Assembly (NCBI GenBank): GCA_021786295.1
Contig: JAJYNO010000017.1
Span: 114,389-178,388, forward strand
DNA: 64,000 nucleotides
DNA from: a bacterium
GTDB lineage: Bacteria > Elusimicrobiota > Elusimicrobia > Elusimicrobiales > UBA9959
Direction of reading: 5' to 3'
In this document: positions 34,357 to 35,621 of the stretch, piece after piece
Layout of the letters: each line of letters starts with the position of its first letter
Position numbering within the stretch: the stretch's first letter is position 1
Notes under the pieces: model-generated
What the model was told of the DNA's origin: nothing
Databases searched by the model: none
Seen by the model: only the letters and a program-made list of their open reading frames with translations
Translations under genes and position numbers: made by a program

Positions 34357-34650
34357 TCAGCAGCAGTCGCCGCCTTCCCCGCAGCCGCAGGCGGGCTCGG
34401 TGCCTTTTATCAAGCCGGTTATCACGGCGGCCGCGCAGCCCACGCCTTTCTTAAGGCTGAGCGCCTCCACGGGGCAGTTGCCGGCGCAGGCGCCGCATTC
34501 CATGCACATGTCTACGTCCGTTATTCGTGCCTTCCTGCCGCTCATCTCCAGCACGGCGTGGGGGCAGACCTGCACGCACATGCCGCAGCCGATGCACTTG
34601 GCTTCGTCAAGTTTCAGCGTCGCCACGCCTTTAAGATATTTCAGGCTCAT
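34357..34650 (-). CDS. hgcB: HgcB, 2[4Fe-4S] ferredoxin of mercury methylation
   Basis: 97 aa; CIGCGMCVQVCP and CMECGACAGNCP clusters; C-terminal CGCGEGGDCC; ATGA overlap with hgcA. Confidence 0.94.
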   Translation of the reverse strand: MSLKYLKGVATLKLDEAKCIGCGMCVQVCPHAVLEMSGRKARITDVDMCMECGACAGNCPVEALSLKKGVGCAAAVITGLIKGTEPACGCGEGGDCC

Positions 34651-35621
34651 ATGAACCTCCGGAGGAGGACCATAGCCAGTCCGGCCGCAAGGCTTACCCC
34701 CTGCACTGGCAGGGCGGCGCGCATCTCCTTCATCACTCCCGACAGCGAGGTATAGGTGGAGGAGCCGGTGAATTGCAGGCCGATGAACGACGCGACCGGC
34801 AGGTATACCAACGCGCGGGCGCAGGCGTGGAACAGGTCCTGCGAAAGGAAAGGATAGGCCGCGGCGAGCCCGATGGCGCCGGCGGCCGCGCTTTTGATGG
34901 CGAAGGCTCTGCCCGGCAGCCAGGGCAGCAGCGCAGGCACCAGCAGCGTCGAGGAAAGCAGCGTCGCCGCGGTTAGCATGGCGTCGGCCCTGAAGCCGAA
35001 GAAATAGAGCAGCGCCGCGGCGGGCAGCAGATATTTGCCGAAATTGACCAGCTCGATGGGGGAAAGCGCCATGCGGTCGGCGAAGCCGAAGCGCACCCGC
35101 CGCATTTCCGGTGCCGCTTTCTTCCCGGCGGCCATGAACGAGGGGATATCCTCCGCGCGCACCGGGCCGTAAATGACCGAGAAGCCGGTGTAGGCCTTCA
35201 CCCTGTGGGCCGCTACTCCCGGAGCGCCCAGTTGCGGAACTATTATCTCCTTGCGGCTCAGCAGGTCCCCCAGGCCGCTCTCCATTATGGAGCGGGTCAG
35301 CTCCATCGTGCCAAAAGTGCCTTTGCCTGCCGCGCACCAGACGTTTATGCCCTTAGTGTCCAGCACCAGCAGCCAGGCGTCGCCTTTCACCGAAGTGCGG
35401 AGCGCGTCGAAACTGAGCCTGTAGTTGGCGGAGGCGAAAACGGGGGAATCCGGGTCGGGCGAGCCCAGAGCGTAGAGGCCCGGTTTTATCCTCATCTTCA
35501 TGCGGCCGATGCCCCAGCGGGCCTTCCAGGAGGCCCGCCTGTCCGCCGCGCGGTATTCCCCGGTGACGGCGAAGGAGACGCTCTCCTCCTGCCCGGCCGT
35601 GCCGTCGTCGTTCCCTGTCAT
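34647..35621 (-). CDS. hgcA: HgcA, corrinoid mercury methyltransferase
   Basis: WKARWGIGRM..KPGLYALGSPDPDSPVFASANYRLSFDALR, cap-helix motif GINVWCAAGKGTFGT, IIVPQLGAPGVAAHRVKAYTGFSVIYGPVRAEDIPSF, then C-terminal TM helices. Start set at ATG 35621. Confidence 0.95.
   Translation of the reverse strand: MTGNDDGTAGQEESVSFAVTGEYRAADRRASWKARWGIGRMKMRIKPGLYALGSPDPDSPVFASANYRLSFDALRTSVKGDAWLLVLDTKGINVWCAAGKGTFGTMELTRSIMESGLGDLLSRKEIIVPQLGAPGVAAHRVKAYTGFSVIYGPVRAEDIPSFMAAGKKAAPEMRRVRFGFADRMALSPIELVNFGKYLLPAAALLYFFGFRADAMLTAATLLSSTLLVPALLPWLPGRAFAIKSAAAGAIGLAAAYPFLSQDLFHACARALVYLPVASFIGLQFTGSSTYTSLSGVMKEMRAALPVQGVSLAAGLAMVLLRRFI

What the first reader, a model, noticed from the sequence alone, without database searches (positions are those of the whole stretch)
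34357..35621. Complete hgcAB mercury-methylation gene pair
The minus-strand ORF carries the diagnostic HgcA cap-helix motif NVWCAAGK, flanking HgcA-specific blocks (KARWGIGRM, VPQLGAPGVAAH, VIYGPVRAEDIPSF) and a C-terminal TM domain. It overlaps by ATGA a 97-aa ferredoxin with two CxxCxxCxxxCP clusters and a terminal Cys pair, which is HgcB. Established knowledge: hgcA and hgcB together are required for Hg(II) methylation. The genomic background (Elusimicrobiota-like, inferred) would be a poorly characterised methylator.
Basis: partly seen in the sequence, partly recalled or inferred. Interest (0 to 1): 0.95.

Follow-up and report, generated by a model that had tools for sequence, protein, structure and literature searches.

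The report
Mercury-methylation genes beside arsenic-resistance genes
This uncultured Elusimicrobiota bacterium carries a complete, apparently functional pair of genes for turning mercury into toxic methylmercury, back to back with an arsenic-resistance operon, and its genome bin holds a second, diverged pair; such genes are already known from this phylum, but the two pairs carry two different conserved DNA switches of the arsenic-sensor type, which makes arsenic control of methylmercury production testable.

Summary
hgcA (34647-35621, -) and hgcB (34357-34650, -) pass the curated NCBIfam equivalog cut-offs (376 vs 275 bits; 121 vs 99 bits) and keep every residue known to be needed: cap-helix Cys96, five TM helices, two CxxCxxCxxxCP clusters, Cys72 and a C-terminal Cys pair. 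CFeSP/CdhD is excluded. The organism is Elusimicrobiota, a phylum already known to carry hgcAB, so the gene pair is an ordinary new member. (2) The same genome bin holds a second hgcAB pair of another subclade (63% HgcA identity), the only such case in 347 phylum genomes. (3) Two conserved palindromes lie upstream of hgcA: type B (TTCGTTAT-N8-ATAACGAA, window copy) and type A (CATATATGC-N8-GCATATATG, second copy). Each occurs once in the genome, and site type matches the adjacent ArsR subtype in all 15 readable loci. ArsR control of hgcAB is known in Pseudodesulfovibrio mercurii; these sites, the divergent layout and two differently controlled pairs appear new. Activity is untested.

The parts
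34647..35621 (-). hgcA, 324 aa: corrinoid-binding domain with cap-helix Cys96 (N93-V-W-C-A-A-G-K100), then five transmembrane helices
   Evidence: NF040863 376 bits, cut-off 275; invariant columns incl. N93 V94 W95 C96 A98 G99 K100; AF2 pLDDT 89, helices 187-207, 211-234, 240-258, 263-287, 293-323; best PDB hit 9a0b HgcAB model
34357..34650 (-). hgcB, 97 aa: dicluster ferredoxin, ATGA overlap with hgcA; extra Cys72 (GVGC) and C-terminal Cys96-Cys97
   Evidence: NF040864 121 bits, cut-off 99; Cys positions 19,22,25,29 / 49,52,55,59 / 72 / 88,90,96,97
34304..34328 (.). perfect hairpin between hgcB and the converging ABC-F gene; probable 3' end of the hgcAB transcript (no T-run)
   Evidence: RNA fold -22.7 kcal/mol, z -3.6; position; not listed by the terminator scan, which requires a T-run
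35640..35663 (.). type B palindrome TTCGTTAT-N8-ATAACGAA between hgcA and arsR, probable ArsR operator
   Evidence: only copy in the 64-kb window, expected 0.01 with 2 mismatches; only site in the 2.3-Mb genome bin with up to 1 mismatch; conserved at the same place in G144, G082, G139, G113 and a metagenome contig
35628..35640 (.). A/T-rich symmetric block with a TATAAT on each strand (- 35633-35628 for hgcA, + 35635-35640 for arsR): probable bidirectional promoter; hgcA ATG follows its TATAAT by 6 nt, suggesting leaderless mRNA
   Evidence: sequence and conservation; no match to a full -35/-10 sigma-70 consensus
35682..35960 (+). arsR, ArsR/SmtB metalloregulator with ELCVC motif, 92 aa, divergent from hgcA
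   Evidence: NF033788 85 bits, cut-off 55; subtype B, 57-65% identical to ArsR at the other readable type B sites
35969..36931 (+). arsP-type permease (PF03773)
   Evidence: ArsP_1 230 bits, cut-off 32
36940..37176 (+). ArsE/MTH895-family thioredoxin-like protein
   Evidence: TIGR00412 96 bits, cut-off 62
37173..37601 (+). arsC-like arsenate reductase of the LMW-phosphatase fold
   Evidence: PF01451 above cut-off; TIGR02691 112 bits, below its cut-off of 174
37601..38665 (+). ACR3 arsenite efflux transporter
   Evidence: TIGR00832 445 bits, cut-off 283

Best explanation
This is a genuine hgcAB operon of an uncultured Elusimicrobiota bacterium. HgcA binds a corrinoid with cap-helix Cys96 as lower ligand, takes a methyl group (probably from methyl-tetrahydrofolate; the donor enzyme is unknown) and passes it to Hg(II); HgcB reduces the corrinoid and its Cys72 and tail cysteines handle Hg(II)/CH3Hg+ (inferred from conserved residues and published work on ND132). 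Transcription starts from a promoter shared with the divergent arsR-arsP-arsE-arsC-ACR3 operon; a dimeric ArsR bound to the palindrome at 35640-35663 represses both directions until arsenite or a similar thiophilic metal(loid) binds its CVC site (inferred). A second hgcAB pair on another contig of the same bin carries a different operator type and has lost its neighbouring cognate ArsR.
For: Equivalog cut-offs passed by both genes and by both pairs. All mutationally essential residues present. Fold match to the HgcAB model and to CFeSP. Purifying selection on both hgcA copies, dN/dS about 0.21 and 0.25. ars genes at 20 of 26 assessable Elusimicrobiota hgcA loci and 18 of 50 loci of other phyla, against 3 effector hits in 378 kb beyond 5 kb. 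Two operator types, each unique in the genome, matching the adjacent ArsR subtype in 15 of 15 loci (5 type B, 10 type A). ArsR control of hgcAB and its response to arsenic were shown experimentally in P. mercurii ND132, as reported in PMC10349881.
Against: No expression, binding or methylation data. No complete sigma-70 promoter was found by consensus. The genome is a 79%-complete MAG, so the second pair could in principle be mis-binned. The 15 loci are related, so the operator-ArsR agreement is not 15 independent events. Only one pterin-binding enzyme, a MetH-like protein, was found, so the methyl donor route is open.
Confidence: 0.83

Rival explanations
1. HgcAB here serves mainly another purpose (a metalloid or an unknown thiophilic substrate), with Hg methylation a side reaction; the ars neighbourhood reflects the native role.
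For: The native function of HgcAB is described as unresolved. Conserved placement beside arsP, arsE/F/G and ACR3 across families and phyla.
Against: All residues needed for Hg methylation are kept, including the HgcB tail cysteines. Linkage may reflect shared ArsR regulation rather than a shared substrate.
Confidence: 0.2
2. The second hgcAB pair (contig C11) belongs to another Elusimicrobiota species and was binned here by mistake, so the genome has only the window pair.
For: The MAG is incomplete with 1.4% contamination; the island part of C11 is lower in G+C; G144, the sister species by Obg, shows only a type B pair.
Against: The rest of C11 matches the bin in tetranucleotide use. A C11 core gene has its nearest relatives (G146, G147, G140, G127) in the same species clade as the window's Obg. 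The pair lies inside a 32-kb contig.
Confidence: 0.2
3. HgcA is a CFeSP/CdhD relative of the Wood-Ljungdahl pathway, not HgcA.
For: Pfam CdhD matches the corrinoid domain.
Against: The gamma-subunit model scores 67 bits against a cut-off of 306; HgcA passes its equivalog cut-off. The cap-helix Cys, TM domain and HgcB partner are absent from CFeSP. PF03599 hits only the two HgcA in this genome.
Confidence: 0.01

Closest known systems
HgcA/HgcB of Pseudodesulfovibrio (Desulfovibrio) mercurii ND132
   Same: Same domain plan, cap-helix Cys, five TM helices, two 4Fe-4S motifs, extra Cys and tail Cys pair; an ArsR-like regulator controls hgcAB
   Different: In ND132-type loci arsR is upstream and co-transcribed with hgcA; here arsR is divergent, heads a full ars operon and shares a short intergenic region with hgcA, whose mRNA is probably leaderless
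Elusimicrobia hgcAB reported from metagenomes (PMC7438021, PMC7573106)
   Same: Same phylum, and HgcA falls in one Elusimicrobiota clade
   Different: The window HgcA belongs to a subclade with only a few close relatives (82% identity at best) and its genome bin holds a second pair of another subclade
hgcAB flanked by acr3, arsC, arsR, arsM (McDaniel et al. 2020, PMC7438021, Fig. 6)
   Same: Same association of hgcAB with arsenic genes
   Different: Here the linkage is counted across a phylum, includes arsP and arsE/F/G, and comes with two conserved operator types that track ArsR subtype
Corrinoid iron-sulfur protein gamma subunit (CFeSP/CdhE, PDB 2h9a)
   Same: Homologous corrinoid-binding domain
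   Different: No cap-helix Cys, no TM domain, no HgcB; part of acetyl-CoA synthesis

Membership tests
HgcA | Passes the curated equivalog model NF040863 | tested here: met
   376 bits, cut-off 275
HgcA | Cap-helix motif N(V/I)WC(A/S)(A/G)GK with strictly conserved Cys | tested here: met
   NVWCAAGK, Cys96, invariant in a 41-sequence alignment
HgcA | C-terminal domain of five TM helices | tested here: met
   AF2 model, five helices between 187 and 323; matches 9a0b
HgcA | Cys-on cobalamin coordination | not testable with these tools
   Model is apo; the cap-helix block has low confidence (pLDDT 63)
HgcA | Methylates Hg(II) in vivo | not testable with these tools
   Needs complementation and a methylmercury assay
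HgcB | Passes NF040864; two CxxCxxCxxxCP motifs | tested here: met
   121 bits, cut-off 99; Cys positions
HgcB | Extra conserved Cys (ND132 Cys73) and C-terminal Cys pair | tested here: met
   Cys72 in GVGC, Cys96-Cys97
CFeSP gamma / CdhE | Passes the acetyl-CoA decarbonylase/synthase gamma model | tested here: not met
   67 bits, cut-off 306
ArsR-regulated hgcAB (ND132 type) | ArsR/SmtB regulator adjoining hgcA with an As(III)-type Cys motif | tested here: met
   NF033788 above cut-off, ELCVC motif
ArsR-regulated hgcAB (ND132 type) | arsR co-transcribed with hgcA | tested here: not met
   arsR is divergent here, so this is a different layout with similar presumed control
ArsR-regulated hgcAB (ND132 type) | hgcAB transcription responds to arsenic | not testable with these tools
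   Needs expression data

The most novel reading that the evidence does not exclude
One bacterium runs two hgcAB pairs of different subclades under two different ArsR-operator systems, so that methylmercury production is switched by arsenic(-like) signals for one pair and derepressed, or controlled by an unlinked regulator, for the other; and the constant company of arsP/arsE/F/G/ACR3 means HgcAB belongs to a thiophilic metal(loid) detoxification programme in which an ArsP-type permease may export the methylated product.
Probability: 0.2. Interest if true: 0.75.

Novelty: new member of a known kind. Interest (0 to 1): 0.45.

Why it matters
hgcAB is the only known genetic basis of microbial methylmercury formation, and what switches it on and what it is for are open questions. 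The gene pair adds one more Elusimicrobiota candidate methylator. The predicted operators give a concrete DNA target for testing whether arsenic exposure controls methylmercury production outside the few cultured strains, and the dual-pair genome bin is a natural case of two differently controlled copies.

Tried and rejected
CFeSP/CdhD identity: rejected on HMM scores. Chance ORF: rejected on scores and purifying selection. Single-copy assumption: a genome search found a second pair. Dual copies as something unprecedented: rejected, 3 of 50 hgcA-bearing genomes of other phyla also have two copies above cut-off (Halanaerobiales MAG, Syntrophomonas UBA5288, Acetivibrio mesophilus). A regulon-wide operator: both palindromes occur only at hgcA in this genome. 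Cognate type A ArsR elsewhere in the genome: none found, best 43% identity, in a 79%-complete genome. Sigma-70 and terminator consensus scans gave nothing convincing. No Rfam family in the window. The ND132 ArsR paper (PMC10132117) is not held; its result is cited from PMC10349881.

Full report
Observation. The window holds, on the minus strand, hgcA (34647-35621, 324 aa) and hgcB (34357-34650, 97 aa) overlapping by ATGA. NCBIfam equivalog models give HgcA 376 bits (cut-off 275) and HgcB 121 bits (cut-off 99); the CODH/ACS gamma-subunit model reaches 67 bits against a cut-off of 306. In a 41-sequence alignment N93 V94 W95 C96 A98 G99 K100 are invariant. HgcB has clusters Cys19/22/25/29 and 49/52/55/59, Cys72, and tail cysteines 88, 90, 96, 97; mutation of the corresponding Cys93 of HgcA, and Cys73 or the tail pair of HgcB, abolishes or nearly abolishes activity in ND132 (PMC7305189). 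The AlphaFold2 model (pLDDT 89) has five C-terminal TM helices; its best PDB match is the HgcAB model 9a0b (E 2e-19, 40% identity), then CFeSP. The cap-helix stretch is of low confidence in the apo model, so the Cys-over-cobalt geometry is not tested. Nonsynonymous change is suppressed (dN/dS about 0.21 against the sister species). The observation and the identification stand.

Organism. The closest HgcA proteins and named contigs are Elusimicrobia MAGs, and the Elusimicrobiota HgcA form one clade (74 rows, SH-aLRT 99). hgcA in Elusimicrobia is already in the literature (PMC7573106, PMC7438021). PF03599 finds only the two HgcA in this genome, so no CdhD/CdhE was found in the 79%-complete bin, in line with the published absence of the CODH catalytic subunit in Elusimicrobia methylators. 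One pterin-binding protein, an 837-aa MetH-like protein, was found; the methyl donor route remains inferred.

A second pair. Contig C11 of the same bin carries another complete hgcAB (HgcA 402 bits, HgcB 126 bits), 63% and 70% identical to the window pair and also under purifying selection. Among 347 genomes of the phylum, 26 have HgcA above cut-off and only this one has two. Elsewhere 3 of 50 hgcA-bearing genomes have two, so dual copies are uncommon, not unique. The window copy groups with sister species G144 (100/99), the C11 copy with G128, G129 and G137 (100/99 for a set of six that also holds two species of another genus). In the Obg tree G000 is sister to G144 inside a clade with G129, G128 and G137, so both copies can be native to the lineage. 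Mis-binning is not excluded, but most of C11 matches the bin in tetranucleotide use and a C11 core gene has its nearest relatives in the same species clade.

Neighbourhood. hgcA is divergent from arsR-arsP-arsE-arsC-ACR3. In the window's own family and order all 16 assessable loci have ars genes within 6 kb, and over the phylum 20 of 26 do; G144 could not be assessed because its contig ends. Many have two ars half-modules on either side of hgcAB: arsR-arsC-ACR3 and arsR-arsP-arsE-arsF-arsG. In 50 loci of other phyla, 18 have an ars effector gene within 5 kb, against 3 effector hits in 378 kb beyond 5 kb of the same loci; this sample is the loci closest in sequence to the query, not a random one. 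The linkage itself was reported by McDaniel et al. 2020.

Operators. Between hgcA and arsR lies a perfect palindrome, TTCGTTAT-N8-ATAACGAA (35640-35663), beside an A/T block with a TATAAT on each strand; the hgcA ATG follows its TATAAT by 6 nt, which suggests a leaderless mRNA. The same site with the same spacing stands before hgcA in G144, G082, G139, G113 and a metagenome contig. Other loci, including C11, instead have CATATATGC-N8-GCATATATG or a slightly shortened form of it. Each site occurs once in the genome bin. The adjoining ArsR proteins fall into two subtypes, 31-40% identical to each other, and the subtype agrees with the operator in all 15 loci where both can be read, 5 type B and 10 type A (Fisher p 0.0003, not corrected for relatedness). 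In C11 the type A site remains but arsR-arsC-ACR3 beside it is gone, and no close type A ArsR was found in the bin. Shown: conservation, uniqueness, agreement with regulator subtype. Inferred: binding, repression, induction by As(III) or Hg(II). ArsR control of hgcAB and its response to arsenic are experimentally known in P. mercurii ND132 (as reported in PMC10349881).

Verdict. A genuine hgcAB pair and an ordinary new member of a known kind. The added value is the second pair, the strength of the ars linkage in this phylum and the two operator types. Interest 0.45.

Noticed in passing
L003 (G000:C11:14000-31984), 8562-9841: Second complete hgcAB pair of the same bin, convergent with arsR-arsP-arsE-arsF-arsG, with a type A palindrome upstream but no adjoining arsR-arsC-ACR3; the arsP stretch drops to 50% G+C.
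   Followed up: yes
window 27554-32326: Possible nitric-oxide module near hgcAB: DUF438-hemerythrin-PAS protein, DUF1858 protein and a quinol-type NorB nitric oxide reductase (- strand).
   Followed up: no
window 28970-30055 (-): Single ORF joining a uracil-DNA-glycosylase-superfamily domain to a DUF488 domain; looks like a gene fusion.
   Followed up: no
window 38814-46280 (+): TetR regulator, TolC, membrane-fusion protein, RND pump, FmdE-family protein with zinc finger and a TauE-like permease follow the ars operon directly.
   Followed up: no
G145 (L036/L135): HgcA groups with the window subclade, but the operator and ArsR are of type A, so enzyme and regulator modules seem to have been exchanged.
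   Followed up: partly
genomes of L047, L079, L080: Halanaerobiales MAG, Syntrophomonas UBA5288 and the isolate Acetivibrio mesophilus N2K1 each have two HgcA above the curated cut-off.
   Followed up: no
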